In this document: positions 2,846 to 64,000 of the stretch, piece by piece
Position numbering within the stretch: position 1 is the stretch's first letter
How the letters are laid out: each line of letters starts with the position of its first letter
Translations under genes and position numbers: made by a program
Assembly (NCBI GenBank): GCA_022376925.1
Contig: JAIOJX010000003.1
Coordinates: 39,231,874-39,295,873 of the forward strand
Length of the DNA stretch: 64,000 nucleotides
Source: Tragulus kanchil
Lineage: Eukaryota; Chordata; Mammalia; Artiodactyla; Tragulidae
Direction: 5' to 3'
Notes under the pieces: model-generated
Database searches by the model: none
Seen by the model: the letters and a program-made list of their open reading frames with translations, nothing else
Told to the model about the DNA's origin: nothing

Positions 2846-3032
2846 GGAAGTGGAAGTTGCTCGATTGTGCTCGACATTTTGCAACCCCATGAATGGTAGC
2901 TTGCCAGACTCCCCTGTCCATGGAATTCTCCAGTCTAAAAGACTGGAGTGGATAGCCATTTCCTTCTCCATGGGATCTTCCCAACCCAGAGATTGAACCC
3001 AGGTCTCCCACATTGCAGGCAGATTCTTTACC
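2846..3032 (-). mobile_element. Bov-tA/Bov-A SINE
   Basis: Minus-strand Bov-tA-type SINE recognised by 'accccatgaatggtagc', 'ctccagtctaaaagactgg', 'gattgaacccaggtctccc' and 'gcaggcagattctttacc'. The head end is truncated. The first tandem doubling begins inside this element at 2869, so a second partial copy appears at 3936-4099. Confidence 0.8.
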
Positions 3033-3419
3033 TTGCTCCTCTTCAAAGAGGCCAAGCATATTTGTACCTCTGGGTTTGAAACTCATTCTTCCCTCATTCT
3101 GGAATGCTCTGTCTCTGATAGCCAGCAAATTGTTCCTTCACTTTACTCATTCTGTACAAAAGTTTTCCCTGAATTCTCACCTAACACATGTTACTCTGTG
3201 TCCCTTTACCTTGCTCTATTTTTCTTTATAGTACCTATCATAGTGTATCTTCATTTATTTTGGGGGAGGTTTTGTCTTTCTTCCTAGAGCATAAACATCA
3301 GGAAAGCAGGGTATTACCCCACTTGTCACTGCTCTGTCTCCAGGGCCTAGACCAGCAAGTACATGAAATGCTCAGTGAACAGTTGTTGAGTTTATATATG
3401 ATTGGCTATTTCTGAGTAT
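3033..3419. other. Unique sequence within doubling 1
   Basis: No repeat or gene is recognised. It recurs as 4100-4486 in copy B. The short open frames repeat identically and carry no domain. Confidence 0.5.
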
Positions 3420-3429
3420 AATTGCTTTA

Positions 3430-3641
3430 CAGGTGGTGCTCGTGGTAAAGAACCTGCCTGACAATGCAGGCGACTTGAGAGATTCAGGTTTGCTCTATGG
3501 GTAAGGAAGATCCTCTGGAGGAGGGCATAGCAACCCACTCCAGTATTGTTGCCTGGAAAATCCCATGGACGGAGGAGCCTGGTGGGCTGTTGTCCATAGG
3601 GTAGCAGAGTCAGACATGACAAAGCAACTTAGCATGTATGC
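3430..3641 (+). mobile_element. Bov-tA SINE
   Basis: Plus-strand Bov-tA SINE: 'ggtaaagaacctgcctgac' head, 'caacccactccagtattg' and 'cagagtcagacatgacaaag' tail. A 10-bp target-site duplication, aattgcttta, lies at 3420-3429 and 3642-3651, showing insertion into the L1 3' end that follows. Confidence 0.85.
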
Positions 3642-3651
3642 AATTGCTTTA

Positions 3652-3920
3652 TAATGTTGTGTTAGGTTCTGCTGTGTAATAATGTGAATCAACACTAAGT
3701 ATGTGTGTGTGTGTGTGTATACATATATATACCACCTTCCCCTTGAGCCTGTCTCCCTCCCTACTCCTCATCCTATCCCTCTAAGTCACCGCGTAACACC
3801 CAGCTCCGTTCCCTGTGTCCTACAGCAGCAGTTTCCCACTAGCTATCTGTTTTACACATGGTAGTATGTATATGCTAGTGGTATGCTTGTTCTGTATAAT
3901 GTACAGTTCTAATTGGAACA
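3652..3920 (-). mobile_element. L1 3' UTR fragment
   Basis: Antisense artiodactyl L1 3' end: 'taatgttgtgttaggttctg', a (gt)n tract at about 3700-3719, 'ccctctaagtcaccgcg' and 'ctagctatctgttttacac'. It is interrupted at its left edge by the Bov-tA at 3430-3641. Confidence 0.75.
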
Positions 3921-4496
3921 CCATCCGTTGATTGGGCTCGACATTTTGCAACCCCATGAATGGTAGCTTGCCAGACTCCCCTGTCCATGGAATTCTCCAG
4001 TCTAAAAGACTGGAGTGGATAGCCATTTCCTTCTCCATGGGATCTTCCCAACCCAGAGATTGAACCCAGGTCTCCCACATTGCAGGCAGATTCTTTACCT
4101 TGCTCCTCTTCAAAGAGGCCAAGCATATTTGTACCTCTGGGTTTGAAACTCATTCTTCCCTCATTCTGGAATGCTCTGTCTCTGATAGCCAGCAAATTGT
4201 TCCTTCACTTTACTCATTCTGTACAAAAGTTTTCCCTGAATTCTCACCTAACACATGTTACTCTGTGTCCCTTTACCTTGCTCTATTTTTCTTTATAGTA
4301 CCTATCATAGTGTATCTTCATTTATTTTGGGGGAGGTTTTGTCTTTCTTCCTAGAGCATAAACATCAGGAAAGCAGGGTATTACCCCACTTGTCACTGCT
4401 CTGTCTCCAGGGCCTAGACCAGCAAGTACATGAAATGCTCAGTGAACAGTTGTTGAGTTTATATATGATTGGCTATTTCTGAGTATAATTGCTTTA

Positions 4497-4708
4497 CAGG
4501 TGGTGCTCGTGGTAAAGAACCTGCCTGACAATGCAGGCGACTTGAGAGATTCAGGTTTGCTCTATGGGTAAGGAAGATCCTCTGGAGGAGGGCATAGCAA
4601 CCCACTCCAGTATTGTTGCCTGGAAAATCCCATGGACGGAGGAGCCTGGTGGGCTGTTGTCCATAGGGTAGCAGAGTCAGACATGACAAAGCAACTTAGC
4701 ATGTATGC
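4497..4708 (+). mobile_element. Bov-tA SINE (copy B of doubling 1)
   Basis: Exact second appearance of the element at 3430-3641, offset by 1067 bp with the same target-site duplication. It is not an independent insertion. Confidence 0.85.
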
Positions 4709-4718
4709 AATTGCTTTA

Positions 4719-4987
4719 TAATGTTGTGTTAGGTTCTGCTGTGTAATAATGTGAATCAACACTAAGTATGTGTGTGTGTGTGTGTATACATATATATACC
4801 ACCTTCCCCTTGAGCCTGTCTCCCTCCCTACTCCTCATCCTATCCCTCTAAGTCACCGCGTAACACCCAGCTCCGTTCCCTGTGTCCTACAGCAGCAGTT
4901 TCCCACTAGCTATCTGTTTTACACATGGTAGTATGTATATGCTAGTGGTATGCTTGTTCTGTATAATGTACAGTTCTAATTGGAACA
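4719..4987 (-). mobile_element. L1 3' UTR fragment (copy B of doubling 1)
   Basis: Exact second appearance of 3652-3920. Not an independent insertion. Confidence 0.75.
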
Positions 4988-5002
4988 CCATCCGTTGATT
5001 GG

Positions 5003-5825
5003 GCTCTTGGAATATCTGTTTTCTGGATGTTCCTATTTTCTGAAAATAACTCATTTGTTTGTGATATGGTGGCCAAGACGGATGAGAAAGAAATCATCTA
5101 GGAAAATAGCCAGCTTTTATTTACATTCTATGCTGCAGAAATTTTGTGAGAGTTCACAACTGAGTGATGAGCATTAGCCAACGGCTCCTACGGTTTTGGG
5201 AGATGGTTCAGTTCCTAGATGGGCCAGAATTTTCTCACTGGTTATTGTTCAGTCTCTTTACTTTGATCTTACCTGAACAAGCTCCATGTCTACCCTTGAA
5301 AATAACTCAGATTTCTAATCAGTCCAGAGACTAGCTTTCCTATGCCTGCTCTGGTACAAATTTTATAGTCACGTAGCAGAGTGTGCAAAAATAAAATGTT
5401 ATTGTCTATAAAAATTTTTATCATGGTGTCCTGAACTCCCAGGCTGAATGTAGAGTAGAACTTCATTCAGACTCTCCTGGAATTTCAGTCACATGTTAGT
5501 GATTTCTCAGCCTGTTCAGACTTGACCCAGCCAGGGCATGGTGGGGTTTGCTCTTCTTGCCTCGTGAGCTTCAGGCTACATTTTATGGTGAACACTTCTT
5601 GTTTTAGCTTCAACCTAGGCCTTCTGACTGTCTTTACCAAAACCATGTCCAGATTTGTATTTGAACTCTTAGATTTTATAAAACTCAAGGGATTTCCTTC
5701 AGCTCTCAAATGCCTAGGTGAATCCTCTGGTGTTTCTCCCCTTCACTGCACAGGTGGGGAACTTTTCACAGAGTTGTGCTTTTCCCCTGAACTATACCTG
5801 GGAAAAAACTCTCAGGTTCTCTCTC
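5003..5825. other. Unique sequence, no gene seen
   Basis: No repeat family is recognised. The 117-residue plus-strand frame at 5522-5875 runs into the L1 tail and shows no domain, so I do not call it a gene. Confidence 0.55.
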
Positions 5826-7697: not shown

Positions 7698-7984
7698 TTT
7701 TTCTTAAAGGTCATCGCACTTTCCCTCACTTGAGTTTGGGTTCTTAAGTGAAGAGAGTAGAAGTTCAGACTATTTCTGACTTTCGTTGAAGACTGTCTTT
7801 ACTTCAGATGGTAGCTTCTAGTGGGGGTGATGGTACAAAAGATGGGCGAAATTTTGGTTGCGACTTATCAAGAAACATTGCCTAAGACTTGAAATTGGTG
7901 AAAGAGACTGCTGCATATACTTTCAGCAGAGAATGGAGCATTGTTTAAAAGAGGGATTCTCATTTGGCAGTGTCTGAAGATACT

Positions 7985-8115
7985 TTTCCCTCTCAGTTTT
8001 ACTGAGATATAATTGACCTACAGCACTGAGTAAGTTTAAAGTGTGCGGAATAATGACTTAATTTTTGTATATATAGTGAAATGATAGCCACAATAGGTTC
8101 TGTTAACATCCATTG
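7985..8115 (-). mobile_element. Old L1 3' end fragment
   Basis: 'tttactgagatataattgac' followed by 'gtaagtttaaagtgtg' and 'cacaataggttctgttaac' resembles the antisense 3' end of old mammalian L1 (L1M) elements. It is diverged and short. It reappears at 9087-9217 through the doubling. Confidence 0.55.
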
Positions 8116-8195
8116 TTTTACACATATACACACACAGGAAAAAAAAAATAAAGCATTTTTCCTTGTGAGGAGAACTCTTAGGTTCTGCCTGGAGA

Positions 8196-8825
8196 CATTT
8201 TTAAAAATTTAGTTTTAGTTGGAGGATGATTGCTTGATAATGTTGTGTTGGTTTCTGTCCTACATCAACAGGAATCAGCCATAGGTATACCTATGTCCTC
8301 TCCCTCTTGAACCTCTCTCCCACTTTTTTTTCTGCCTCATCCCACCCCTCTAGGTTGTCACAGAGCACCAGGTTGGGTTCCCTGTGTTATACAGTAACTT
8401 CCCATTAGCTATCTGTTGTACATATGGTAGTGTGTATATGTCAACGCTACTTTCTCAATTCATCACATGCTCTCCTGCCCCCGCTGTGTTGTGTCCATAG
8501 GTCTATTCTCTATCTGAGTCTCTATTCTTGCCCTACAAATAGATTCCTCAGTACCAATTTCCCTGATTCCATATGTATTTGCATTAATATACGATATTTT
8601 TCTCTTTCTGACTGACTTCACTCAGGATGAAAGGCTCTGGGTTCATCTACCTCACTACAACTGACACAGATTTATTCCTCTTTATGGCTGAGTAATATTC
8701 CATTGTATATATGTACCACAGCTTCTTTATCCATTCATCTATTGATGGATGTCTAGGTTACTTCCGTGTCCTGGCTATTACAAATAATGCTGCTATATTG
8801 TGTCAGGGTATATGCCCAGTAGTGG
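8196..8825 (-). mobile_element. L1 3' end (copy A)
   Basis: Antisense L1 3' UTR and ORF2 end: 'ataatgttgtgttggtttct', 'ccacccctctaggttgtcac', 'ctgagtaatattccattg', 'ccattcatctattgatgg'. It is cut at the joint at 8826 and is continuous only in copy B. Confidence 0.85.
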
Positions 8826-9297
8826 TTCCACTTGAGTTTGGGTTCTTAAGTGAAGAGAGTAGAAGTTCAGACTATTTCTGACTTTCGTTGAAGACTGTCT
8901 TTACTTCAGATGGTAGCTTCTAGTGGGGGTGATGGTACAAAAGATGGGCGAAATTTTGGTTGCGACTTATCAAGAAACATTGCCTAAGACTTGAAATTGG
9001 TGAAAGAGACTGCTGCATATACTTTCAGCAGAGAATGGAGCATTGTTTAAAAGAGGGATTCTCATTTGGCAGTGTCTGAAGATACTTTTCCCTCTCAGTT
9101 TTACTGAGATATAATTGACCTACAGCACTGAGTAAGTTTAAAGTGTGCGGAATAATGACTTAATTTTTGTATATATAGTGAAATGATAGCCACAATAGGT
9201 TCTGTTAACATCCATTGTTTTACACATATACACACACAGGAAAAAAAAAATAAAGCATTTTTCCTTGTGAGGAGAACTCTTAGGTTCTGCCTGGAGA

Positions 9298-9985
9298 CAT
9301 TTTTAAAAATTTAGTTTTAGTTGGAGGATGATTGCTTGATAATGTTGTGTTGGTTTCTGTCCTACATCAACAGGAATCAGCCATAGGTATACCTATGTCC
9401 TCTCCCTCTTGAACCTCTCTCCCACTTTTTTTTCTGCCTCATCCCACCCCTCTAGGTTGTCACAGAGCACCAGGTTGGGTTCCCTGTGTTATACAGTAAC
9501 TTCCCATTAGCTATCTGTTGTACATATGGTAGTGTGTATATGTCAACGCTACTTTCTCAATTCATCACATGCTCTCCTGCCCCCGCTGTGTTGTGTCCAT
9601 AGGTCTATTCTCTATCTGAGTCTCTATTCTTGCCCTACAAATAGATTCCTCAGTACCAATTTCCCTGATTCCATATGTATTTGCATTAATATACGATATT
9701 TTTCTCTTTCTGACTGACTTCACTCAGGATGAAAGGCTCTGGGTTCATCTACCTCACTACAACTGACACAGATTTATTCCTCTTTATGGCTGAGTAATAT
9801 TCCATTGTATATATGTACCACAGCTTCTTTATCCATTCATCTATTGATGGATGTCTAGGTTACTTCCGTGTCCTGGCTATTACAAATAATGCTGCTATAT
9901 TGTGTCAGGGTATATGCCCAGTAGTGGGATTGCTGTGTCATATGTAATGTATTCCTAATTTTTTAAAGAAATCTCTGTATTCTTC
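9298..9985 (-). mobile_element. L1 3' end (copy B, extends further)
   Basis: Second appearance of 8196-8825. It continues past the doubling into ORF2 ('ggattgctgtgtcatatg', 'aatctctgtattcttcctg'), so this is the copy with the native flank. Confidence 0.85.
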
Positions 9986-11075: not shown

Positions 11076-11516
11076 ATAACACCAATGCTCACCCTTTAAA
11101 AATGAGTAACAGTTGCTTAATATCCACAGATACCCAATGTGCACAGATTCCTGTTGTATCACATATCCTTAAACAGTTTGAATTTTCAAATAAAGTCTGT
11201 ATGTTGCAATTGGTTGATGTCTTTTTTGTTTCTTTTAATCTAAAATTTTCATCAGTGTCTCTATTTTCCTTGTCATTGCATTGTTGACTAAATGTGACCA
11301 CTCTTTTTGTAAAGTTTCCCATAACATGACTTAATTACATCCTCCTGCTGTTGTTGCCTGTGTTTCCTGCAGCAAAGGCATTAGATCCAGGGGCTTGATC
11401 AGACACAGGCTTCATTTTTTGGTAAGAACCCTTATGAAGTTGGTGTTGTGTACTTCCATCAAAGTCTGATTGACTCAACTTTTGTGATGCTGTTAGCTAT
11501 GGGTTATCATTACCTA

Positions 11517-11712
11517 GGGGCTTCCCAGGTAGTGCTTATTTTAAAGAATCTGCCTGCCAGTGCAGGAGATGTGGGTTCATATTCCTGGAGGAGGAAATGG
11601 CAACCCACATTGGTCTTTTTGCCTGGAAAAATTCCATGAACAGAAGAGCCTTGTTGGCCTACAGTCCAAGGGGTCGCAAAGAGTTGGGCATGACTGAGCA
11701 CATACAGACACA
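11517..11712 (+). mobile_element. Bov-tA SINE (copy A)
   Basis: Plus-strand Bov-tA: 'gggcttcccaggtagtgc' head, 'aaagaatctgcctgccag', 'aggaaatggcaacccac', 'gcaaagagttgggcatgac' tail. Near-repeats 'tacctagg' and 'tgcctagg' at the edges are the likely target-site duplication. Confidence 0.82.
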
Positions 11713-12614
11713 TCACTGCCTAGGTTGATTTTTTTTTTTTTTTTTTAATAAAGGATGAGCCCTGCATTTAAAAAAGCTATTCTTGACTTCATTTTCTCCC
11801 AGGCTTCCTGTTCACCTTTGGATGTTTCGTGTCTGTGGGTGGTCATCTTGCAATGGGATAGTGAAGGTTTCCCTTCAGAGGTTAATGCCTCCTTGAGGAG
11901 GTGAAGTCAGATGTAAGAGGATCCAGGCAGAGGGGACAGAAGGTTTACAGGCCAAAGGACGTGATGGACGTGACTCCATAGGAGGAGAGGCCAGGGAAGA
12001 ACAGAAGGGAGATAAGCTCGGAGAAAGTGTGGATCAGGCCCAAATGTGAAAGGTCTTCTCAGAAGGCATTATTTGATTATAGTACTTTACAGGTTCCTAT
12101 GCACACATTCCTGAAAATGAAAGGACTCCACCAAGGGGAAAACAGAAGCACCACCAGGCCATGTGCCCCAAACTGAACCGGGAGTACCCAATGTTAAAAA
12201 TGAGTAACAGTTGCTTAATATCCACAGATACCCAATGTGCACAGATTCCTGTTGTATCACATATCCTTAAACAGTTTGAATTTTCAAATAAAGTCTGTAT
12301 GTTGCAATTGGTTGATGTCTTTTTTGTTTCTTTTAATCTAAAATTTTCATCAGTGTCTCTATTTTCCTTGTCATTGCATTGTTGACTAAATGTGACCACT
12401 CTTTTTGTAAAGTTTCCCATAACATGACTTAATTACATCCTCCTGCTGTTGTTGCCTGTGTTTCCTGCAGCAAAGGCATTAGATCCAGGGGCTTGATCAG
12501 ACACAGGCTTCATTTTTTGGTAAGAACCCTTATGAAGTTGGTGTTGTGTACTTCCATCAAAGTCTGATTGACTCAACTTTTGTGATGCTGTTAGCTATGG
12601 GTTATCATTACCTA

Positions 12615-12810
12615 GGGGCTTCCCAGGTAGTGCTTATTTTAAAGAATCTGCCTGCCAGTGCAGGAGATGTGGGTTCATATTCCTGGAGGAGGAAATGGCA
12701 ACCCACATTGGTCTTTTTGCCTGGAAAAATTCCATGAACAGAAGAGCCTTGTTGGCCTACAGTCCAAGGGGTCGCAAAGAGTTGGGCATGACTGAGCACA
12801 TACAGACACA
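12615..12810 (+). mobile_element. Bov-tA SINE (copy B)
   Basis: Same insertion as 11517-11712, seen again through doubling 3 (offset 1098). Confidence 0.82.
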
Positions 12811-13259
12811 TCACTGCCTAGGTTGATTTTTTTTTTTTTTTTTTAATAAAGGATGAGCCCTGCATTTAAAAAAGCTATTCTTGACTTCATTTTCTCCCAG
12901 GCTTCCTGTTCACCTTTGGATGTTTCGTGTCTGTGGGTGGTCATCTTGCAATGGGATAGTGAAGGTTTCCCTTCAGAGGTTAATGCCTCCTTGAGGAGGT
13001 GAAGTCAGATGTAAGAGGATCCAGGCAGAGGGGACAGAAGGTTTACAGGCCAAAGGACGTGATGGACGTGACTCCATAGGAGGAGAGGCCAGGGAAGAAC
13101 AGAAGGGAGATAAGCTCGGAGAAAGTGTGGATCAGGCCCAAATGTGAAAGGTCTTCTCAGAAGGCATTATTTGATTATAGTACTTTACAGGTTCCTATGC
13201 ACACATTCCTGAAAATGAAAGGACTCCACCAAGGGGAAAACAGAAGCACCACCAGGCCA

Positions 13260-15078: not shown

Positions 15079-15172
15079 TTTGAGACCCTATGGACTGTAG
15101 CTCTCCAGGTTCCTCTGTTCATGGAATTTTCCAGGCAAGAATACTGGAGTCGGTTGCCATTTCCTTCTCTGT
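15079..15172 (-). mobile_element. Bov-tA SINE fragment
   Basis: Middle part of a minus-strand Bov-tA ('ccctatggactgtagctc', 'caggcaagaatactggag', 'ttgccatttccttctctg') without its tRNA-like head. Doubling 4 begins inside it at 15105, giving a second, shorter appearance at 16219-16286. Confidence 0.75.
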
Positions 15173-15904
15173 GCATATGCTAGAAGGTTAAATTTCTTCT
15201 CACACAATGATCCTGTACCTTAAGAAGGTGCCTGTGTCATGCCTTTGAGCTGAGATGTTCAATGTTTTATACTAAAGGTTGTGATATTCCAAATATGGAG
15301 AGAAAATAGTCAAGGACTGCAGAAGACGTTTCTGATCTTGAGGTGAAGTTTTTGAATCGTCTTGCACTTCTGATAATAACATATTCTCCAAATAATTGCA
15401 GTTATGCAGAGGGACCAGATACTGGATAAAAAGTGTGAAATATTTTGCTGGGTTCCTTGTGACCTAAGTACATTTTGGTCAGTAATGTACCCTATGGGCT
15501 TGGCTTTCTTTTCTTGCAGAGTGTCTTCAGGATAATTAAATGTCTAAACTCTCAGCTTGATCTTAGCCCTCGTGACTCCAGAGGCCATGACTAATGACAG
15601 AGAATCCCAGGACTGGGGACACATTATCCAATATTATTTGATAACTTCCCTGAGGGCAAGAACAGTGTCTTTTACATTTTATAGAATTTTTTTATATATG
15701 AGTTGTTCTCTAACAGCAGTGTATGTAAAAATTACATGAAAACTATTAAAAATGTAGATTCTGGCCTCTCTTTATATCTCTTTTCTTTGGAATTTACATT
15801 TTTACCAAGCTCTCCTGCTCTTATTATGTAGAAGTGTTCATCATCTGACAGGTAGTCTTGATGTATGTAGAATGAGTATAGTTCTATAGTTCTGTTTTCT
15901 TTGT
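15173..15904. other. Unique sequence within doubling 4
   Basis: No gene or named repeat. The 60-residue frame at 15557-15739 repeats at 16671-16853 only because of the doubling. Confidence 0.5.
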
Positions 15905-16218
15905 CTCTATTTTAAAAATAACATTTTACTGAGATATAATTTACATCCCATAAATTCTACCTTTTAAGCACACACTTTAGTGATTTTTATAGTATATTCA
16001 CAAAGTTGTGTGATTATCAGTGGTATCGAATTGCAGAACATTTTCATAAGCCCCCGAAGAAACTCCTTACCTATTAACTGTCATTCCCATCCCCCTTTCA
16101 GTCTGCAGTGTACAAGTCTTACATTTCTTTTGTTGAATTTATTCCTAAGTATTTTCTTCTGTTTTAGGCTATTGTGAACTGAATATTTTTCTTAACGTCA
16201 TTTTTGGATAGTTCATTG
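15905..16218 (-). mobile_element. L1 fragments, antisense (copy A)
   Basis: 'tttactgagatataatttac' to 'cccttcagtctgcag'-like sequence (to about 16105) resembles an L1M 3' end. From about 16118, 'gttgaatttattcctaagt' and 'aggctattgtgaactgaat' match antisense L1 ORF2. The joint at 16219 cuts the element; copy B continues it. Confidence 0.65.
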
Positions 16219-17018
16219 CCAGGTTCCTCTGTTCATGGAATTTTCCAGGCAAGAATACTGGAGTCGGTTGCCATTTCCTTCTCTGTGCATATGCTAGAAG
16301 GTTAAATTTCTTCTCACACAATGATCCTGTACCTTAAGAAGGTGCCTGTGTCATGCCTTTGAGCTGAGATGTTCAATGTTTTATACTAAAGGTTGTGATA
16401 TTCCAAATATGGAGAGAAAATAGTCAAGGACTGCAGAAGACGTTTCTGATCTTGAGGTGAAGTTTTTGAATCGTCTTGCACTTCTGATAATAACATATTC
16501 TCCAAATAATTGCAGTTATGCAGAGGGACCAGATACTGGATAAAAAGTGTGAAATATTTTGCTGGGTTCCTTGTGACCTAAGTACATTTTGGTCAGTAAT
16601 GTACCCTATGGGCTTGGCTTTCTTTTCTTGCAGAGTGTCTTCAGGATAATTAAATGTCTAAACTCTCAGCTTGATCTTAGCCCTCGTGACTCCAGAGGCC
16701 ATGACTAATGACAGAGAATCCCAGGACTGGGGACACATTATCCAATATTATTTGATAACTTCCCTGAGGGCAAGAACAGTGTCTTTTACATTTTATAGAA
16801 TTTTTTTATATATGAGTTGTTCTCTAACAGCAGTGTATGTAAAAATTACATGAAAACTATTAAAAATGTAGATTCTGGCCTCTCTTTATATCTCTTTTCT
16901 TTGGAATTTACATTTTTACCAAGCTCTCCTGCTCTTATTATGTAGAAGTGTTCATCATCTGACAGGTAGTCTTGATGTATGTAGAATGAGTATAGTTCTA
17001 TAGTTCTGTTTTCTTTGT

Positions 17019-17470: not shown

Positions 17471-17635
17471 CCCAGCCCAGCTAGTGACTAACATGTCTCA
17501 GCATACCACTGGAATGAGTCGAGAGAAAAGGGCATTAGGGTGTTTCTGAGCCACTGTCCTCATCCTGCATGGGCTGCTTCTAGTCTTCTTGTTAGATACA
17601 TGATGACTGTTTTTGCGCTTAAGCCCTTGCTACTT

Positions 17636-17758
17636 AAAAATGTGGTTGGTGAACCAGCAGTCCTTGGTATCACCAGGCAGCTTGTGCAAAATTCAGACTC
17701 TCTGACTTCACACTGGACCCACTCAATCAGAATCTGCACTTCAGCAAGCTCTCCTGTT
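17636..17758. mobile_element. MER5-like DNA transposon fragment
   Basis: 'gaaccagcagtccttggtat', 'caccaggcagcttgtgc', 'aaattcagactctctgac' and 'tcaatcagaatctgcac' follow the order of the non-autonomous hAT element MER5A. It is old and diverged. It recurs at 18748-18870 through doubling 5. Confidence 0.6.
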
Positions 17759-50133: not shown

Positions 50134-50303
50134 TGGATTATAGCTGCCAGGCTCCCCTGCATGGGATTTCCCAGGCAAGAATACTGAGATAGATTACCAT
50201 ATCCCACTCCAGGAGATCCTGCAAACCCAAGCATTAAACCTGTGTCTCTTGAGTCTTCTGTGTTAGCAGGTGGATTCTTCACCACTCTGCACCTGGGAAG
50301 CCC
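50095..50303 (-). mobile_element. Bov-tA SINE
   Basis: Minus-strand Bov-tA: 'cttagtaagtcacagcc', 'gacctcatggattatagc', 'caggcaagaatactgag', head 'cacctgggaagccc'. The flanks share catttag(a/g)cagt. Its first 40 bp also appear at 49017-49060, where the joint of doubling 14 cuts it. Confidence 0.85.
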
Positions 50304-50606: not shown

Positions 50607-52936
50607 ACTTGTTGCCTCCAGGGAGACTGTCTCAGTTTAATCACAAATTGGTACTCCAGCATTTTCCATCCTACTATGTATCCTATTGTTCTGTTTAAAA
50701 ATCCAGCTCATATTTTTTTTCATACCTAATACTTCCAGTGGGTTCCTTTTCTTATGACTTCCTTTGGATGTTTCATGTTGCCAATGCCTTCTCTTCTCAA
50801 AGATCTTTAAAGCCATGCTTATTTGAAAGTTCTTTGTCACTTCCACAATTCTGTGTCAGATATTGTTCTTTTGCTGTCTGTATAGTAATTATACTTCTCA
50901 GATGTCTAGTTATTGTGCCTGTGAGCTCACGTTCCAGCCCTAGATTCTGCCCAGTCACAACGAATGGCATTTTACTTAAGTCTTGGGTTAAGTTTTCACC
51001 TTTAAACACTCAGAGGAGCGGCCCTAGGGGGAGGCAAATAGGTGGTGTGCTAGATGAGGAAAGGATGGAAGAATGAGGATGACTTCAGAAGAACGGATCC
51101 ACTCCCACATACCTTCATTAACATTCCAGGCATAGGATGTACAGGCTTTAAGCTGATGTTACCACGAGGCCCGTGCTGGGACCAATTTCTGCAGTAAAGC
51201 ACCAGGCAAAGATGTCCCTGGGCGAGGCTTGGGAGAGATAAAAGCAGACTTTAAGAGCTTACCTCCAGTTTATCCTCTGGCCACCCAGTCCTCCTCCTCC
51301 AATTCAAGTCAGTTTTCAACTTCTTTCTTGCTTCTCACAGTTTTTGATCATGATAGCTTAATAATTCCCTTCCTCTCTAAGATTTTTGTTCAGGCTAATT
51401 TTGAGATGGGGAGCAAGCAGTATGATGGTAGCTACTCTCTCTCTTTGACCCAGAATGCGACCATAAAACGTGTCATTGTGGGTTCTCAGGTGTGTATGCC
51501 TCCAGACTGTACGTTTCTTGGAGTCAGGATCATAATTTGCCTTGATGCCTGTTTTCCTTCACTTGTTTCTGCCCTTTGCCCTTTCTTCTTGATTCTGTTA
51601 GTTGGAATGAAGATTTAACTGTGGCTGTCAAACAGAGTAGTTTCTTTTCCTCTCATGCAAGAAGCCCATGGTAAGTAATCTAAATGGCTTTTCACTGAGC
51701 CACTAGGGAGCCAGTCTATCTCCAGTTCATCTCTTTGGCATCCCTGGAATGTAGTGCAACAGTTTTTTTTCACTTGTTGCCTCCAGGAGACTGTCTCAGT
51801 TTAATCACAAATTGGTACTCCAGCATTTTCCATCCTACTATGTATCCTATTGTTCTGTTTAAAAATCCAGCTCATATTTTTTTTCATACCTAATACTTCC
51901 AGTGGGTTCCTTTTCTTATGACTTCCTTTGGATGTTTCATGTTGCCAATGCCTTCTCTTCTCAAAGATCTTTAAAGCCATGCTTATTTGAAAGTTCTTTG
52001 TCACTTCCACAATTCTGTGTCAGATATTGTTCTTTTGCTGTCTGTATAGTAATTATACTTCTCAGATGTCTAGTTATTGTGCCTGTGAGCTCACGTTCCA
52101 GCCCTAGATTCTGCCCAGTCACAACGAATGGCATTTTACTTAAGTCTTGGGTTAAGTTTTCACCTTTAAACACTCAGAGGAGCGGCCCTAGGGGGAGGCA
52201 AATAGGTGGTGTGCTAGATGAGGAAAGGATGGAAGAATGAGGATGACTTCAGAAGAACGGATCCACTCCCACATACCTTCATTAACATTCCAGGCATAGG
52301 ATGTACAGGCTTTAAGCTGATGTTACCACGAGGCCCGTGCTGGGACCAATTTCTGCAGTAAAGCACCAGGCAAAGATGTCCCTGGGCGAGGCTTGGGAGA
52401 GATAAAAGCAGACTTTAAGAGCTTACCTCCAGTTTATCCTCTGGCCACCCAGTCCTCCTCCTCCAATTCAAGTCAGTTTTCAACTTCTTTCTTGCTTCTC
52501 ACAGTTTTTGATCATGATAGCTTAATAATTCCCTTCCTCTCTAAGATTTTTGTTCAGGCTAATTTTGAGATGGGGAGCAAGCAGTATGATGGTAGCTACT
52601 CTCTCTCTTTGACCCAGAATGTGACCATAAAACGTGTCATTGTGGGTTCTCAGGTGTGTATGCCTCCAGACTGTACGTTTCTTGGAGTCAGGATCATAAT
52701 TTGCCTTGATGCCTGTTTTCCTTCACTTGTTTCTGCCCTTTGCCCTTTCTTCTTGATTCTGTTAGTTGGAATGAAGATTTAACTGTGGCTGTCAAACAGA
52801 GTAGTTTCTTTTCCTCTCATGCAAGAAGCCCATGGTAAGTAATCTAGGTCTGCAACAGTGGCTTTGCTTCACTGAGCCACTAGGGAGCCAGTCTATCTCC
52901 AGTTCATCTCTTTGGCATCCCTGGAATGTAGTGCAA
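50607..52936. repeat. Tandem doubling 15 (about 1155-bp unit, twice)
   Basis: Copy A is 50607-51760 and copy B 51772-52936, with a short t-rich filler (51761-51771). Copy B lacks one g near its start (ccagggag versus ccaggag). Copy A lacks a net 12 bp about 80 bp before its end (aatctaaatggctt versus aatctaggtctgcaacag...). One c/t difference lies at 51460 versus 52622. The unit is unique DNA. Frames such as 50738-51076 and 51229-51618 have no recognised domain. Confidence 0.93.
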
Positions 52937-52989
52937 CCTGGTGACACTGCCTCCCATGCCACAGGCTGAAGACAAAGATATGGAAGGGT

Positions 52990-53172
52990 GGTGGTGGTTT
53001 AGTCACCAAGTCCTGTCTAACTGTTTGTGACCTGATGGACTGCAGCCCGCCCTCTCTCCATGGGATTTCCTGGGTGAGATCACTGGAGTGGGCTGCCATT
53101 TCCTTCTCCAGGGGATCTTCCTGTTTCTCCTGCACTGGCAGGTGGGTTCTTTACCACTGAGTCACCTGGGAA
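52990..53172 (-). mobile_element. Bov-tA SINE (copy A)
   Basis: Minus-strand Bov-tA: ggt repeats, 'tttagtcaccaagtcctg', 'gacctgatggactgcagcc', 'ttgcactggcaggtggg'-like 3' part, head 'tcacctgggaagga'. An internal deletion removes part of the usual B-box region. Confidence 0.82.
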
Positions 53173-53175
53173 GGA

Positions 53176-53872
53176 TTAGAAAAGGAAATATTTTAGCAGT
53201 ATTTTTGTTGCTGTTGATTTTTTTGGAAAATGTTCCAGTAAGATGGCCCACAAAACTTGTTTTTACCACTACCACTGTAACGTACAACTTGGTTTATCAG
53301 ATACTACTTAAATGCATCGTTATGTCCAGGTGCAAGAAAGCCAGAAAATGAGTATTTAGCCAGCCACACACCCAGCTAAAAATTTGATTTTAGGTTTTGG
53401 GAACAAGGAGTTGTCTCTGTTACATTTTCTTTTCTGTCTTAATTGATCTTATCTTCCTATTTTACTTGTTTTTTTTTTTTTTTTTTTTTTAACCTTCATT
53501 CCCTCCGCCAGTATTACTTAGTTTTGAGTATACACCAGGGGCTGCATTAAATGCTTCTTAATCTCAGTATTCTGCATTACCATCCTTTGTCTGGAGGGCA
53601 AAGATATTTTACTGTATTAGAAAATCTTAGGGAGAAAGATACAGGTTGGATGGAGAAATTCCATTTGTTGTATGAGAAGAGTTTTCTATTCTTCAGAGAA
53701 GGAAACAGACCCAAGAAAACAGTGTCAAAGATTTTGGTTGACTTTTGCTTTTGCAACTTAGCAGTTACAGACTTACAACACTTATTCATTCATCCAGTCT
53801 GTCAACCACGGTGTCAGGTGTTAGATGTTCAACTATAAATAAGTCGTCAGAATCCCTGCCCTTTGGGGGACA
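53176..53872. other. Unique sequence within doubling 16
   Basis: Contains a 22-base T run near 53469-53490. From about 53771 an old L2/MIR-like phrase ('cttattcattcatccagtc', 'cagaatccctgccct') occurs. No gene. Confidence 0.45.
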
Positions 53873-54079
53873 CTTAGCGTGTACAAAGGAAATTACAGAC
53901 ACTTATTCGAATTCCCGTCAGTTTTTTATGCCCTAAACGGTCTGCAACAGTGGCTTTGCTTCACTGAGCCACTAGGGAGCCAGTCTATCTCCAGTTCATC
54001 TCTTTGGCATCCCTGGAATGTAGTGCAACCTGGTGACACTGCCTCCCATGCCACAGGCTGAAGACAAAGATATGGAAGG

Positions 54080-54261
54080 GTGGTGGTGGTTTAGTCACCA
54101 AGTCCTGTCTAACTGTTTGTGACCTGATGGACTGCAGCCCGCCTCTCTCCATGGGATTTCCTGGGTGAGATCACTGGAGTGGGCTGCCATTTCCTTCTCC
54201 AGGGGATCTTCCTGTTTCTCCTGCACTGGCAGGTGGGTTCTTTACCACTGAGTCACCTGGG
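54080..54261 (-). mobile_element. Bov-tA SINE (copy B)
   Basis: Same insertion as 52990-53172 through doubling 16. Confidence 0.82.
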
Positions 54262-54946
54262 AAGGATTAGAAAAGGAAATATTTTAGCAGTATTTTTGTT
54301 GCTGTTGATTTTTTTGGAAAATGTTCCAGTAAGATGGCCCACAAAACTTGTTTTTACCACTACCACTGTAACGTACAACTTGGTTTATCAGATACTACTT
54401 AAATGCATCGTTATGTCCAGGTGCAAGAAAGCCAGAAAATGAGTATTTAGCCAGCCACACACCCAGCTAAAAATTTGATTTTAGGTTTTGGGAACAAGGA
54501 GTTGTCTCTGTTACATTTTCTTTTCTGTCTTAATTGATCTTATCTTCCTATTTTACTTGTTTTTTTTTTTTTTTAACCTTCATTCCCTCCGCCAGTATTA
54601 CTTAGTTTTGAGTATACACCAGGGGCTGCATTAAATGCTTCTTAATCTCAGTATTCTGCATTACCATCCTTTGTCTGGAGGGCAAAGATATTTTACTGTA
54701 TTAGAAAATCTTAGGGAGAAAGATACAGGTTGGATGGAGAAATTCCATTTGTTGTATGAGAAGAGTTTTCTATTCTTCAGAGAAGGAAACAGACCCAAGA
54801 AAACAGTGTCAAAGATTTTGGTTGACTTTTGCTTTTGCAACTTAGCAGTTACAGACTTACAACACTTATTCATTCATCCAGTCTGTCAACCACGGTGTCA
54901 GGTGTTAGATGTTCAACTATAAATAAGTCGTCAGAATCCCTGCCCT

Positions 54947-55584: not shown

Positions 55585-57772
55585 AAATGACTTCTGAGCA
55601 TGGTAGTTTAGTAATCGGGTGGCAAGGCAGAAGTCTTGAGGATTGGAATATTGACGGTCAGAGGGGAAGTGGCCACTGTGGTCAGTGGTCAGTGTGATGT
55701 GTGAGCTCTTAGGAAGGGAAGCTGGGGTTGGGGGGCAACTGTGATGCTCACCAATGAGGGGCTCTGTTATTCTCCAGTGCAATATCTGGTATGTTTTGTG
55801 GCAGAGGGGAGTGTATGTCTTCTGTGAGGACTTTTCAGCAGTTGCATGGGCTCCAGTAAGTGTTTCTGGATAGACGGGGCAAGGTAGAGAGAGATCTGAA
55901 GAAGGGAACCCTGTGACATCCTAGGCTTGCAGGAAAAATGGGAGGCTAGTATGGCTTATATTGGGATCAGATCATGGAAATATTATGTTATACTCATTTG
56001 TTTTCTGGACATTATGTCTGTGGGAGCCCAGGCATGTTTTGGGAAATTCATCACTTGATACCTGAACTGACTGACAGTATTTATTATTTTTAATGCTGAC
56101 ATCGAAGACAAACCCACTTTTTGATTTGGAAAATATAATTTCGTTATGCATTGTTAAGGAGGTAAACAATTAGATAGGAGTGCCTTCCTCAAAGATGAAA
56201 AATAATCACCTGAAAGGATGGCCCGTTCTTGAAAAGAAATAGTTTCCATAAATTTACTCTGGACATTGAATTGTCCATCACAAATTTCGGTACATGAAAC
56301 AATTGTCAAATTCAAGTGTCTGTTTTAATTTAATACTGAATGGATTTGGGGGAAGGATAAAGCAGCCCAGTGTAAGGGTATTTCTGTGGAGACCATATTG
56401 GATAAGATGACCTGAAAATACTTTCCTCTCTGGATATGCTATTTTTTGTTGTTCTGTATTAAAATATTTTTTTCAATCATTTATAAAATATCTTAACTGT
56501 AGAGAAAAGATCTGTTTAGTATAAATGGGAATCTATCTTTAAATTAATTCATCTGTCTTCTGTACCACTTGGAAATTGTGTTCAACTGCAAGTAATAGAG
56601 ATGTGAAATACAGTGGATTCAACACTCAAGGAGTATTTTCACCCTTGCACAAAGGATTCTCAGTAGGCAGTTTCATGAAATGACTTCTGAGCATGGTAGT
56701 TTAGTAATCGGGTGGCAAGGCAGAAGTCTTGAGGATTGGAATATTGACGGTCAGAGGGGAAGTGGCCACTGTGGTCAGTGGTCAGTGTGATGTGTGAGCT
56801 CTTAGGAAGGGAAGCTGGGGTTGGGGGGCAACTGTGATGCTCACCAATGAGGGGCTCTGTTATTCTCCAGTGCAATATCTGGTATGTTTTGTGGCAGAGG
56901 GGAGTGTATGTCTTCTGTGAGGACTTTTCAGCAGTTGCATGGGCTCCAGTAAGTGTTTCTGGATAGACGGGGCAAGGTAGAGAGAGATCTGAAGAAGGGA
57001 ACCCTGTGACATCCTAGGCTTGCAGGAAAAATGGGAGGCTAGTATGGCTTATATTGGGATCAGATCATGGAAATATTATGTTATACTCATTTGTTTTCTG
57101 GACATTATGTCTGTGGGAGCCCAGGCATGTTTTGGGAAATTCATCACTTGATACCTGAACTGACTGACAGTATTTATTATTTTTAATGCTGACATCGAAG
57201 ACAAACCCACTTTTTGATTTGGAAAATATAATTTCGTTATGCATTGTTAAGGAGGTAAACAATTAGATAGGAGTGCCTTCCTCAAAGATGAAAAAATAAT
57301 CACCTGAAAGGATGGCCAGTCCTTGAAGAGAAATAGTTTCCATAAATTTACTCTGGACATTGAATTGTCCATCACAAATTTCGGTACATGAAACAATTGT
57401 CAAATTCAAGTGTCTGTTTTAATTTAATACTGAATGGATTTGGGGGAAGGATAAAGCAGCCCAGTGTAAGGGTATTTCTGTGGAGACCATATTGGATAAG
57501 ATGACCTGAAAATACTTTCCTCTCTGGATATGCTATTTTTTGTTGTTCTGTATTAAAATATTTTTTTCAATCATTTATAAAATATCTTAACTGTAGAGAA
57601 AAGATCTGTTTAGTATAAATGGGAATCTATCTTTAAATTAATTCATCTGTCTTCTGTACCACTTGGAAATTGTGTTCAACTGCAAGTAATAGAGATGTGA
57701 AATACAGTGGATTCAACACTCAAGGAGTATTTTCACCCTTGCACAAAGGGATTCTCAGTAGGCAGTTTCATG
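55585..57772. repeat. Tandem doubling 17 (about 1094-bp unit, twice)
   Basis: Copy A is 55585-56677 and copy B 56678-57772; the joint shares 4 bp (aaat). Copy A lacks one g in a g run 24 bp before its end and one a in a run mid-unit. Three substitutions cluster at about 56227-56241 versus 57321-57335 (cccgttcttgaaaag versus ccagtccttgaagag). The unit is unique AT-rich DNA with no gene. Confidence 0.95.
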
Positions 57773-57880
57773 AAATCTCTAGGGATCCAGAGTCTTCTTG
57801 GTACTGTCCTATTGAGAAAATGGCTTCCCCCCTTGAGTTTATCTCTGGAGGTGGTTCCTGGAGATCTAGATGCTATCTTT

Positions 57881-58799: not shown

Positions 58800-59127
58800 C
58801 TTAGGTCTGAGTTTCAGCATGTGGGAATTTTCCTTGTGACTGAAGGGTTTCATTCTAGTACAGACTCTTCATTTGTGGCATCTGGTCTGCGCGGGGAGAG
58901 GGCTCAGTAGTTGTGATGCACAGGCTGTCCCGAGGCCTTTGGGATCTTAGTCCCTGGACCACTTAGTCCCTAGATTCACATCCTCTGCATTGGAAGGTGT
59001 GTTCTTTTATTTTTTATTTTTCAAGTTTTGTTGTTTATAGTTATATATAATCCCAAATCCATCATAGGTATATTTTTGACCCCTCCTGTAAGGTGAATTC
59101 TAAACCACTGGACAACCACGGAAGTCT
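58800..59127 (-). mobile_element. Degenerate CHR SINE, interrupted
   Basis: Minus-strand CHR-type phrases 'gctcagtagttgtgatgc' and 'gggatcttagtccctgg' appear on the left, and the head 'accactggacaaccacgg' on the right. About 80 bp of AT-rich sequence (59005-59090) lies between them. Doubling 18 begins inside that interruption. Confidence 0.6.
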
Positions 59128-61270
59128 CTTCTGATTTGCATTTAAACATGCCTTACATTTTCCCATCTTAAGAAAAAAAAAAAATTCTTGGGCAAATTTC
59201 CTATTCTGTTGCCTCCTGCTCTACTCACATTCCATTGGGCAAAGTGAACTATATGACTAGGTGTAGCTTCAATAGGATGGAGAGATACCCACCTCCAATA
59301 GGGAAGCACTGAAAGTTACAAGTTAATGCATAGGGATGCATGCTTCTCCCCTAGTAAAGGAAGTGAATAATTTCAAATGCGATCTCCCACATCCTCTTTA
59401 TTTCCAGACTCTTTGAAAAAGTTGTCTTCTCTGAAGCATCTCTATTGCTAGTTTTTTTTTTTTTGTTTTCAATAAATCTCCTAGATCTAGTTTCTGCTTC
59501 ACCACATTAGTCAAATTGTTCTTACCAAGGCCACTGACTATATTTCCTTGTTGTTAAGCCCAGAGGAAATGTTTTAGTTCATACAGTGCTTGGACTTAGG
59601 CCAGCCTTTGAGAATGTAGACCACTCTTTTCTAGAAATTATTTCCTTGGCATCCATACCTTTACCTTTTCTCATGTCTGATTGCTTAATCGCACTCTTCC
59701 ATGTGGGCTACTATTTGGGAGGCAACCCCTTAGGTGTTGGTGCCGTTGTATCTCTATTTACACATTTCTCAACAACCTTATCTCTTGCAGTTCTTCAGTC
59801 ATGCTTGTGCTAAGTTCAAAGTACAACCTCAATGTACAAAAGAGTAGCTTCCCTTAGTTTTAGTAAGTGATACCATTGTGCTCCATCCTCTTTCTCCCAG
59901 TTCTCCTATCGGTTGTAGAGAAAATTAAACTGGCTCATTAAACTCATTCTCTTTCAGTTCTGATGTATCTTTCAGATAGTCAAGTCTGTTTCCTTTTTGT
60001 TTTTTAAACTCAGTTTCCTTTTAATGATGGCTTTTCCCTTGCAAAGAGCCTTGGCCTCTGATCACTGCCTGCCTCCCAAGTGAGTCCAGATGGAGTGGGT
60101 TCCTGTAAGTCTTTTTCTTGCTGATGGAAGTATATCCTAATGTATTGAACAAGTGACTGATGGGGAACCCAAATCCATCATAGGTATATTTTTGACCCCT
60201 CCTGTAAGGTGAATTCTAAACCACTGGACAACCACGGAAGTCTCTTCTGATTTGCATTTAAACATGCCTTACATTTTCCCATCTTAAGAAAAAAAAAAAA
60301 TTCTTGGGCAAATTTCCTATTCTGTTGCCTCCTGCTCTACTCACATTCCATTGGGCAAAGTGAACTATATGACTAGGTGTAGCTTCAATAGGATGGAGAG
60401 ATACCCACCTCCAATAGGGAAGCACTGAAAGTTACAAGTTAATGCATAGGGATGCATGCTTCTCCCCTAGTAAAGGAAGTGAATAATTTCAAATGCGATC
60501 TCCCACATCCTCTTTATTTCCAGACTCTTTGAAAAAGTTGTCTTCTCTGAAGCATCTCTATTGCTAGTTTTTTTTTTTTTGTTTTCAATAAATCTCCTAG
60601 ATCTAGTTTCTGCTTCACCACATTAGTCAAATTGTTCTTACCAAGGCCACTGACTATATTTCCTTGTTGTTAAGCCCAGAGGAAATGTTTTAGTTCATAC
60701 AGTGCTTGGACTTAGGCCAGCCTTTGAGAATGTAGACCACTCTTTTCTAGAAATTATTTCCTTGGCATCCATACCTTTACCTTTTCTCATGTCTGATTGC
60801 TTAATCGCACTCTTCCATGTGGGCTACTATTTGGGAGGCAACCCCTTAGGTGTTGGTGCCGTTGTATCTCTATTTACACATTTCTCAACAACCTTATCTC
60901 TTGCAGTTCTTCAGTCATGCTTGTGCTAAGTTCAAAGTACAACCTCAATGTACAAAAGAGTAGCTTCCCTTAGTTTTAGTAAGTGATACCATTGTGCTCC
61001 ATCCTCTTTCTCCCAGTTCTCCTATCGGTTGTAGAGAAAATTAAACTGGCTCATTAAACTCATTCTCTTTCAGTTCTGATGTATCTTTCAGATAGTCAAG
61101 TCTGTTTCCTTTTTGTTTTTTAAACTCAGTTTCCTTTTAATGATGGCTTTTCCCTTGCAAAGAGCCTTCCCCTCTCATCACTGCCTGCCTCCCAAGTGAG
61201 TCCAGATGGAGTGGGTTCCTGTAAGTCTTTTTTCTTGCTGATGGAAGTATATCCTAATGTATTGAACAAG
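59052..61270. repeat. Tandem doubling 18 (about 1102-bp unit, twice, with filler)
   Basis: Copy A is 59052-60153 and copy B 60168-61270. The 14-bp filler tgactgatggggaa reads as a shortened form of the DNA right of copy B (61273-61296). Three substitutions lie about 100 bp before the end of copy A (ggcctctg versus cccctctc near 60052 and 61168). One t-run difference lies near 60113. Confidence 0.94.
59128..60153. other. Unique sequence within doubling 18
   Basis: No gene. The frame 59586-59813 (75 residues, hydrophobic) repeats at 60702-60929 only because of the doubling. Confidence 0.5.
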
Positions 61271-62530
61271 GATGTACTAGATTCAGTGGGGTGGAACAGG
61301 AAAGTTTCTCCTCACTACTGTATTCATTTGGACTGATTCTCTATTCAGTGGAAGAAATTTGGTAAGGACTTAAGGTGTTTCCTGGTCATATTTGATAATA
61401 AAAGTCCAGTCTCATTTATTAATTGTATAACACAAAATTCCAGTCCAATTTGTTTCTCTCCACTCCTGGTGGTTATACTTTTGATCAGTGATTTTTGAGA
61501 ATTATGATAACCCACTTCCAAAGAAATTTTCTAAATACACAGTACTTTATGATTACAGTAATGAAAAAATAAATTTTAATATGTATTTTTACCAAGTAAA
61601 TATAATAAAGGAAGGTATAATGAAAATAAAAGCTGAAATCTTTTTATTGAATTTTTAAATGGATCTTGGAAACTTCTGCTGGGAGGATGGAGTGGTTTTA
61701 TCCCTCTTTTTTTTCCCCATTCATTGGCCAGCTGTTTTTGAAGAGTCTCCAGGGAAGGAAAGAGGTAAGAAAAAAAAAAAAAAAAACTAGAGATTTTACC
61801 TTGAATACATTTTTTATGTGGTGTTGATGTTCTCCAGCTGTGAGAGAGATCAGGCGTTGAACTTTTTCTCATAGGGTTCTTTTGTGTATTTTTAGAGACT
61901 TCCCCATAGCTGGTGGCCAAGCTGCATTTTACTTGTCTTCAGGCTTGTCTGCTCTGGTGGTCACATCTGATCATCACTGTTACCCCTAGTCCTCAAGTCC
62001 CCCCATTCCTGAGCCTGGGCCTTTTGTGTTGCTCTTCCAAGGCGTTCTTGGGAGAACTTCTCTCAAGATGATCCAGCTCAGCTCTCCCTTGAGGCATACT
62101 TTGTAGAGCACTTGCCTTGCCAAATTCTGGAAGAGTGGCCATTCCAACACTGCCCTTCTTCTCTTTGCTGGAGTTGGAGCCACAGCTTCTTTCTTGCTTA
62201 GATGAGGAAAGTCCTCTACTCGCCCTGGGGAGGGTAAGAATCTCTCCAAGGAAACCTCAGTCTCTCCACTTTCTCTCCAGTAGCCTGGTGGGTGTTCACA
62301 GGTGGACTCTGGTGCCACTGTTCACCCATCTTAGATCACTGGTGTGCCACATCTTTGCCTTACAGACCACTTAAACTTATTTTGAAAATTCAACTGTGTG
62401 CTCCTTCCACATTTTTATGTTGCTATCTAAACTTTTTAGTCATAAATTTAATTCATATGCAAGGGTGTAATTTTTTTACTTATTAAAATATCAATATTTT
62501 AAAATAAAACTACTACGTTATTTCTTTAAA
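61271..62530. other. Unique AT-rich sequence, no gene seen
   Basis: Frames 61576-61920 and 61986-62318 (minus) have no recognised domain. A 20-base A run sits at about 61770-61789. No named repeat. Confidence 0.5.
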
Positions 62531-64000
62531 TGTACCTACCATGGATACATAGTACTTTGATACCCTCTATCACAATGACCCACTCCCACCCCCGCAAACA
62601 AAATGGACAACTTTTTTTTAAGCAGAGATTTTATGTTCTATTTCCCCCTGAAACTCTTTTATTTTTCAGTTTCACTTCACTCCAATAATTTTTTCTCTTG
62701 TAATATGTTTTTAAGTTTTCCAGTCCATTATTCCCATGATTTTTCTTTAGTAAAAATGCACATTTAAATTTTAAATTTTAATTTCCTGTGATCATAAAAT
62801 TCCTTCTAAGCCGTGTTATCATAACAGCTATTAATACTCATATGATCAAAGCATAAAAATATGACAAGTTCTGATAAATGCATCCTAACCATAAAAGTAA
62901 ACTTCTGTCAGACATGTGCTTTCTAAAAAGAGGAGAACTTTCTTCTTTTTCTTCTCCTCTTCTTTCTCCACCACCTCCTCCTCTTTCTTCTTTCAATTTT
63001 GAGGATGATCAAGGATTTAGTGAAAATCAGCAACAACAATAAAAGGTAGTATTAGGCCATGGGTAAGTGTGGGCTTACAGAAGATTCATTTCAACTCTTA
63101 ATTGCCTCATTGCAGTGAAATGGACAGTGCTTTCCCATTAAGTAAATCTAGACAAAAGTACAGAGTCACAGGGAGTAAATGAAGAGAGAAGAGGTTAATA
63201 AATGAGAGTAAACAGTAAAAAGTTGAATAGAGATTTGGAGTATTCAATAGTATTTTGGCACAAGGTAAAAAAATTAACCATCTGAATAGATGTTCAAGAA
63301 AATGCAATACTCTATATTCCTTTAACTCAAAAATATACTATTCAACTGTTAGTCACAAACTTGAAAATTTCCACTTTTCTGTTCTTTGAATTATGTAAAA
63401 GAAGCTGCTGAGATGCAAACCTAGGGCATATTGTGAAGGGCAATTTAACTTACAATATGAATATATATATTGTCTCTTTGGGATCATGATGCTGCTCACA
63501 ACCCAAACAGTACACCAGAGTTGAGTGAATTGAATGAGAAGTGGATGAGATATTTGCCTTTCTCATGAGATTGAGTGAATGAATGATTTATCTACTACTT
63601 TAAATTTCTTTAATTTTTTTTTGTACCTACCATGGATACATAGTACTTTGATACCCTCTATCACAATGACCCACTCCCACCCCCGCAAACAAAATGGACA
63701 ACTTTTTTTTAAGCAGAGATTTTATGTTCTATTTCCCCCTGAAACTCTTTTATTTTTCAGTTTCACTTCACTCCAATAATTTTTCTCTTGTAATATGTTT
63801 TTAAGTTTTCCAGTCCATTATTCCCATGATTTTTCTTTAGTAAAAATGCACATTTAAATTTTAAATTTTAATTTCCTGTGATCATAAAATTCCTTCTAAG
63901 CCGTGTTATCATAACAGCTATTAATACTCATATGATCAAAGCATAAAAATATGACAAGTTCTGATAAATGCATCCTAACCATAAAAGTAAACTTCTGTCA
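62531..64000. repeat. Tandem doubling 19 (period 1091, cut by window end)
   Basis: Copy A starts at 62531. Copy B starts at 63622 and is still matching at the window edge. One t-run difference is seen (62697 versus 63788 region). The 30 bp before copy B (63588-63621) resemble a distorted version of the 24 bp before copy A (62507-62530). The rest of the unit is AT-rich DNA without a gene. Confidence 0.93.

What the first reader, a model, noticed from the sequence alone, without database searches (positions are those of the whole stretch)
2869..64000. Nineteen unrelated blocks each doubled in tandem at an almost constant 1.07-1.17 kb
Seen directly: at 19 points the sequence jumps back by 1067-1165 bp and re-reads the same DNA almost perfectly. 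The blocks differ completely in content (SINE, LINE, unique DNA) and only the length is shared. Joints lie about 2.0-5.5 kb apart. No known transposon or replication process gives this. Inference: overlapping contigs or long-read segments were concatenated without merging their roughly 1.1-kb overlaps. About 20 kb of the window would be spurious and the true locus about 44 kb.
Basis: partly seen in the sequence, partly recalled or inferred. Interest (0 to 1): 0.9.

Follow-up and report, generated by a model that had tools for sequence, protein, structure and literature searches.

The report
Genome-wide unmerged overlaps: an assembly artefact
The stretches that appear twice in a row here are almost certainly not real duplications but seams where a genome-assembly program laid neighbouring pieces end to end without merging their shared 1.1-kb overlap, and samples from elsewhere in the same genome show the same fault.

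Summary
In detail: 19 tandem pairs (18 complete, the last cut by the window end), offset 1067-1165 bp, joints 1.98-5.53 kb apart. It is not local. All 16 other 10-kb stretches obtained by place from this 3.17-Gb assembly carry 1-4 such pairs (45 in 156 kb, offsets 1024-1194 bp), and 8 of 31 SINE places elsewhere are same-strand pairs 1069-1180 bp apart. One joint lies inside the telomerase RNA gene, leaving an intact gene followed by a truncated copy. Differences between copies pile up within 100 bp of the ends (about 5-22 per kb, against about 1 inside); simulated perfect duplications show none beyond 20 bp. Where three copies exist, all 23 differences unique to a piece-end or piece-start copy lie within 90 bp of that end. 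This is the signature of separately computed consensus pieces laid end to end unmerged. The near-fixed length fits an assembler such as wtdbg2 that builds on 1024-bp vertices (PMC10989838); that step is inferred. About one third of the window is redundant. Artefact; no biology.

The parts
2863..5006 (.). pair 1: 2863-3939 repeated at 3930-5006, offset 1067
7727..9927 (.). pair 2: 7727-8825 repeated at 8829-9927, offset 1102
11096..13259 (.). pair 3: 11096-12161 repeated at 12194-13259, offset 1098
15105..17336 (.). pair 4: 15105-16222 repeated at 16219-17336, offset 1114
17250..19475 (.). pair 5: 17250-18363 repeated at 18362-19475, offset 1112; 17250-17336 is present three times
22731..25059 (.). 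pair 6: 22731-23900 repeated at 23892-25059, offset 1161
24743..26998 (.). pair 7: 24743-25866 repeated at 25872-26998, offset 1129; 24743-25059 is present three times
29817..31978 (.). pair 8: 29817-30869 repeated at 30927-31978, offset 1110
33265..35422 (.). pair 9: 33265-34335 repeated at 34355-35422, offset 1090
35858..38167 (.). pair 10: 35858-37014 repeated at 37015-38167, offset 1157
38720..40940 (.). pair 11: 38720-39829 repeated at 39830-40940, offset 1110
41741..44014 (.). pair 12: 41741-42878 repeated at 42875-44014, offset 1134
43909..46116 (.). pair 13: 43909-44999 repeated at 45023-46116, offset 1114; 43909-44014 is present three times
47966..50138 (.). pair 14: 47966-49060 repeated at 49040-50138, offset 1074
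50607..52937 (.). pair 15: 50607-51760 repeated at 51772-52937, offset 1165
52847..54946 (.). pair 16: 52847-53862 repeated at 53939-54946, offset 1092; 52847-52937 is present three times
55585..57776 (.). pair 17: 55585-56681 repeated at 56678-57776, offset 1093
59052..61270 (.). pair 18: 59052-60153 repeated at 60168-61270, offset 1116
62510..64000 (.). pair 19, cut by the window end: 62510-62910 repeated at 63592-64000, offset 1082

Best explanation
Assembly artefact: neighbouring consensus pieces that share about 1.1 kb were written end to end without merging the shared part, so it is read twice at every joint. Most likely source: a long-read assembler laid out the genome as a path of graph vertices about 1 kb long and computed one consensus per edge, each piece running from the start of one vertex to the end of the next, so that neighbouring pieces share one vertex. 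Shown: the tandem pairs in every 10-kb sample, the narrow length, the frayed piece ends, the joint inside telomerase RNA. Inferred: that the pieces are wtdbg-type edge consensuses sharing a 1024-bp vertex, that the excess over 1024 comes from net deletions in raw reads (nanopore-like), and the exact faulty step. The confidence given is for the artefact; I put the wtdbg-type vertex as its source at about 0.65.
For: 19 of 19 pairs in the window. 16 of 16 further 10-kb stretches on 15 other contigs hold 1-4 pairs each. Offset over 58 pairs of at least 880 bp: mean 1107, SD 31, minimum 1024. A joint inside telomerase RNA gives an intact copy plus a 3' part-copy 1116 bp on. Differences between copies: about 5-22 per kb in the outer 100 bp against about 1 per kb further in; 60 simulated perfect duplications give none beyond 20 bp from an end. 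In 15 three-copy stretches the odd copy is the piece-end 13 times, the piece-start 10 times, the interior copy 4 times (27 in all); all 23 end or start oddities lie within 90 bp of their piece end. In 33 of 58 pairs copy 1 stops matching before the joint (one of these because the stretch is cut), so unmatched bases sit at the seam. wtdbg2 chops reads into 1024-bp segments that become vertices (PMC10989838, passage).
Against: No reads, no second assembly of the species and no record of the assembler were available. The 90-bp limit was read off the data, so its p value is post hoc; the interior-copy test alone is modest (4 of 27, p 0.028). The longest three-copy stretch, 426 bp, is more than the 256 bp that I recall as wtdbg2's default maximum vertex overlap. 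Only 8 of 31 SINE places are doubled against an expected 40-46%, though that search scored only 40 candidates and is a lower bound. Of four places with a telomerase-like match, two (C2, C30) show no second match, and one 3.2-kb locus brought in by the SINE search (L006) shows no pair; both are expected if only about half of the unique sequence is doubled. Three paper searches aimed at such a fault showed no account of it in the rows listed.
Confidence: 0.97

Rival explanations
1. Same artefact class but another source of the pieces: overlapping short contigs, raw-read segments or polishing chunks with a fixed overlap of about 1 kb, concatenated without merging. (A rival only to the wtdbg-type source.)
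For: The sequence shows unmerged overlaps; it does not name the program.
Against: Fixed overlap with piece lengths from 1.76 to 5.53 kb does not fit chunks of constant size; overlaps of raw reads or contigs should vary widely in length, whereas the SD here is 31 bp of 1107.
Confidence: 0.3
2. Real tandem duplications produced in the animal by replication or repair.
For: Copies are adjacent, head to tail and nearly identical.
Against: One near-fixed length at a joint every 3 kb on all 16 contigs sampled (C32 included); about a third of the sampled sequence; a joint inside the telomerase RNA gene; copies that differ mainly near piece ends. No process known to me does this.
Confidence: 0.002
3. 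Two haplotypes of each stretch retained side by side (heterotype false duplication).
For: A known class of false duplication (PMC9516828, passages).
Against: 5 of 58 pairs are identical and the others differ mainly near the ends, not by evenly spread single-base differences (51 mismatches, 123 gap events in 63,449 columns). The three-copy stretches are not what two haplotypes would give.
Confidence: 0.01

Closest known systems
Homotype false duplication (PMC9516828, passages)
   Same: The same genomic stretch appears twice in an assembly, with differences put down to sequence error and not to haplotypes.
   Different: [quoted passage not shown] in this window they abut directly, with a near-fixed length, at every joint.
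wtdbg2 fuzzy Bruijn graph layout
   Same: Vertices are 1024-bp read segments joined by edges (PMC10989838, passage); the offset here is 1.02-1.19 kb.
   Different: As I recall, its consensus step normally merges the shared vertex; here it was not merged. That this assembly used it is not shown.

Membership tests
False duplication in an assembly | Both copies represent one genomic place (reduced read depth, no spanning reads) | not testable with these tools
   No reads are held; inferred.
False duplication in an assembly | Single-copy genes appear doubled or cut | tested here: met
   Telomerase RNA: intact copy and part-copy in L023. One gene tested; that it is single-copy in mammals is general knowledge.
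Homotype false duplication | Copies differ by sequence error and not by heterozygous sites | tested here: inconclusive
   Differences are mostly gaps and lie mainly near piece ends, but no read k-mers could be checked.
Homotype false duplication | Gap between the copies (frequent in the paper, not obligatory) | tested here: not met
   The window holds no N and the copies abut.
wtdbg-type vertex overlap | Overlap length set by a 1024-bp vertex | tested here: inconclusive
   Offset minimum 1024, mean 1107, SD 31 over 58 pairs: consistent, but the mean is 8% above 1024 and the reason given for that is inferred.
wtdbg-type vertex overlap | Assembly made with wtdbg or wtdbg2 | not testable with these tools
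Tandem duplication of biological origin | Differences spread evenly along the copies; lengths that vary from event to event (my expectation) | tested here: not met

The most novel reading that the evidence does not exclude
A systematic assembly failure (shared graph vertices left unmerged at every joint), not described in the papers I could search, has inflated a whole chromosome-scale mammalian assembly to about one and a half times its true length; a simple scan for tandem pairs near 1.1 kb would find other deposited assemblies with the same fault and the false exon and gene gains drawn from them.
Probability: 0.5. Interest if true: 0.35.

Novelty: not a real feature. Interest (0 to 1): 0.2.

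Why it matters
It says nothing about biology, but it matters for anyone using this assembly. If the samples are typical, roughly a third of the sequence is redundant, about half of the unique sequence is read twice, and genes crossing a joint are cut or doubled. Gene counts, copy-number estimates, repeat content, genome size and short-read mapping would all suffer. The signature is easy to scan for.

Tried and rejected
Real tandem duplication and retained haplotypes were weighed and rejected (see rivals). Identification of the species led nowhere: 15 contigs of 73-297 Mb are seen and C30 reaches at least 46 Mb, which suggests a low-number karyotype, and ORFs in the window carry peptides that I recall as ruminant SINE translations, but the genome has no relatives here and paper searches for giraffe, mouse-deer, gazelle and Tragelaphus with wtdbg2 named no match in the rows listed. 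The wtdbg2 paper itself is not held. Paper searches aimed at the fault: 20 of 237 papers listed; 10 of 16,707; 8 of 77; aimed at the program's workings: none found; 12 of 20,557; 5 of 5. I saw passages of PMC12621783, PMC9915519, PMC11628655, PMC9516828 and PMC10989838, and only listings of the rest. ARAGORN, with the bacterial code, found no tRNA in the window. A first, roughly registered version of the three-copy test gave 42, 3 and 19 odd differences for end, interior and start copies; at least two stretches were visibly out of register, so I replaced it by the aligned version (13, 4, 10). Rows left out of the 58 and 45 pair counts because they are under 880 bp: the window's cut pair 19; two rows of L012 (63 bp each); one of L016 (136 bp); one of L017 (337 bp, 90.8% identical, a repeat match); one of L020 (69 bp); three of L019 (one pair split in two by N, one pair cut by the stretch end). 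A gene-level count with let-7 and four other RNA families got no answer.

Full report
Observation. Comparing the window with itself gives 19 adjacent direct pairs, 18 complete and one cut by the window end. Offsets at the left edge are 1067-1165 bp, joints are 1980-5530 bp apart, identity is 98.7-100% in the 18 complete pairs. Redundant bases sum to 21,120 of 64,000; leaving out copy 1 of each pair gives 42,880 bases. At four places one pair runs into the next, so that stretches of 87, 317, 106 and 91 bp occur three times.

It is not local. I obtained 16 further 10-kb stretches, named by round coordinates before seeing them, on 15 contigs: C1 twice, C2-C8, C10, C15, C17, C23, C26, C27 and C31 once each (ten other places asked for do not exist because the contigs are short). 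All 16 hold between one and four pairs of at least 880 bp: 45 in 156,316 non-N bases, offsets 1024-1194 bp. The six shorter loci outside the window that the SINE search brought in (L003-L008, about 3.2 kb, two sets of which overlap) show a pair in five and none in L006. Independently, of 39 strong SINE rows outside the window's own stretch, 16 form 8 pairs; all 8 are on the same strand, 1069-1180 bp apart, and no two of the 39 lie within 5 kb at any other distance. That is 8 of 31 distinct places; 40-46% would be expected from the joint density, but the search scored only 40 candidates, so it is a lower bound.

A gene is cut. The best telomerase RNA match (341 bits) is intact at L023:1501-1930. 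The stretch from L023:1769 onwards is repeated 1116 bp later, so that a second, truncated telomerase RNA match (97.9 bits) follows. The joint lies inside the gene. One search lists six matches at four places: C23 (this one), C26 (doubled whole, 1107 bp apart), and C2 and C30 (single). Mammals have one such gene (general knowledge); the others are probably retrocopies (inference).

How the copies differ. Over 58 pairs of at least 880 bp (window and L009-L022) the offset is 1107 bp on average, SD 31, minimum 1024, maximum 1173; 63,449 aligned columns hold 51 mismatches and 123 gap events, 41 of the gaps in single-base runs of four or more; 5 pairs are identical. Differences are not spread evenly. 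Counted from either end of the aligned stretch they run at about 5-22 per kb in the first 100 bp and 0.3-1.4 per kb further in. The control, 60 perfect duplications put into the collapsed window and passed through the same steps, gives 10 differences, all within 20 bp of an end. In 33 of 58 pairs copy 1 stops matching before the joint (one because the stretch is cut; one, in L016, beside a small local repeat), so unmatched bases sit at the seam; none of the 40 simulated values printed does so.

Which copy is wrong. In 15 stretches (3,336 bp) three copies exist: the end of one piece, the interior of the next, and the start of the one after. If pieces are separate consensus sequences with poor ends, the interior copy should seldom be the odd one. 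Of 27 differences carried by a single copy, 13 are in the piece-end copy, 10 in the piece-start copy and 4 in the interior copy (p 0.028 against one third). The 13 lie 5-90 bp from the piece end and the 10 lie 4-85 bp from the piece start, although only 39% of the bases lie within 90 bp (the limit was read off the data). An earlier version of this count was out of register in at least two stretches and is replaced.

Mechanism. Pieces of 1.76-5.53 kb whose neighbours share a near-fixed 1.1 kb, each with frayed ends, laid end to end: that is what a layout of graph edges sharing a vertex would give. 'Wtdbg2 chops read into 1024 bp segments, merges similar segments into a vertex and connects vertices based on the segment adjacency on reads' (PMC10989838, passage). 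An edge consensus would run from the start of one vertex to the end of the next, and (recalled) the consensus program is meant to merge the shared vertex. If merging fails or is left out, each joint repeats one vertex. The minimum offset of 1024 and the mean of 1.08 times that fit raw reads with net deletions, as in earlier nanopore data (recalled). I rate the artefact at 0.97 and the wtdbg-type vertex as its source at about 0.65.

Against. No reads, related assembly or assembler name was available. The spacing list has an empty stretch between 2192 and 2660 bp in 48 spacings (0.5% of smooth resamples show one as wide below 3.2 kb) which I do not explain; it hints at an algorithmic grid but was noticed afterwards. 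The longest three-copy stretch (426 bp) is wider than the vertex overlap that I recall as wtdbg2's default.

Size. With a joint every 3.3 kb (window) or 3.0 kb (all stretches; biased short because 10-kb pieces miss long spacings), about 33-37% of the sequence is redundant, so the true length would be about 2.0-2.1 Gb of the 3.17 Gb if the samples are typical. This extrapolates from 220 kb.

Compared with what is known. Homotype false duplications are described in PMC9516828 (passages), most often with a gap between the copies; here the copies abut, with near-fixed length, at every joint. Three searches aimed at such a fault showed no account of it among the rows listed, which is weak evidence of absence: the lists are capped, and most subscription papers and software issue trackers are not held.

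Noticed in passing
joints in the window and L010-L026: Joint spacings fall in two groups, 1756-2192 bp (18 of 48) and 2660-5530 bp (30 of 48), with nothing between. On the vertex reading, adjacent vertices either overlap or lie at least about 450 bp apart. Unexplained.
   Followed up: partly
L024 (G000:C26:102316260-102317799), G000:C2:293517392-293517814, G000:C30:46405529-46405779: Further telomerase-RNA-like sequences over the Rfam cut-off (271.8, 235.8 and 108.3 bits), probably retrocopies; the one on C26 is itself doubled by the artefact.
   Followed up: partly
G000:C18:682249-682918 and G000:C7:83838579-83839248: The small contig C18 (688,525 bases) shows the same pattern of SINE matches, with the same spacing and scores, as a place on C7: the end of C18 may be a second copy of that place.
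   Followed up: no
G000 contigs C14 and C16: Contig lengths of exactly 200,000 and 242,000 bases suggest cuts made on a grid during scaffolding.
   Followed up: no
window 1477-2586, 6925-7350, 23148-24736, 38981-40526, 46332-47296: Several ORFs share a peptide motif that looks like the translation of one SINE-like repeat (by eye). I recognised no gene in the ORF list, and Rfam found nothing in the window at its gathering scores.
   Followed up: partly
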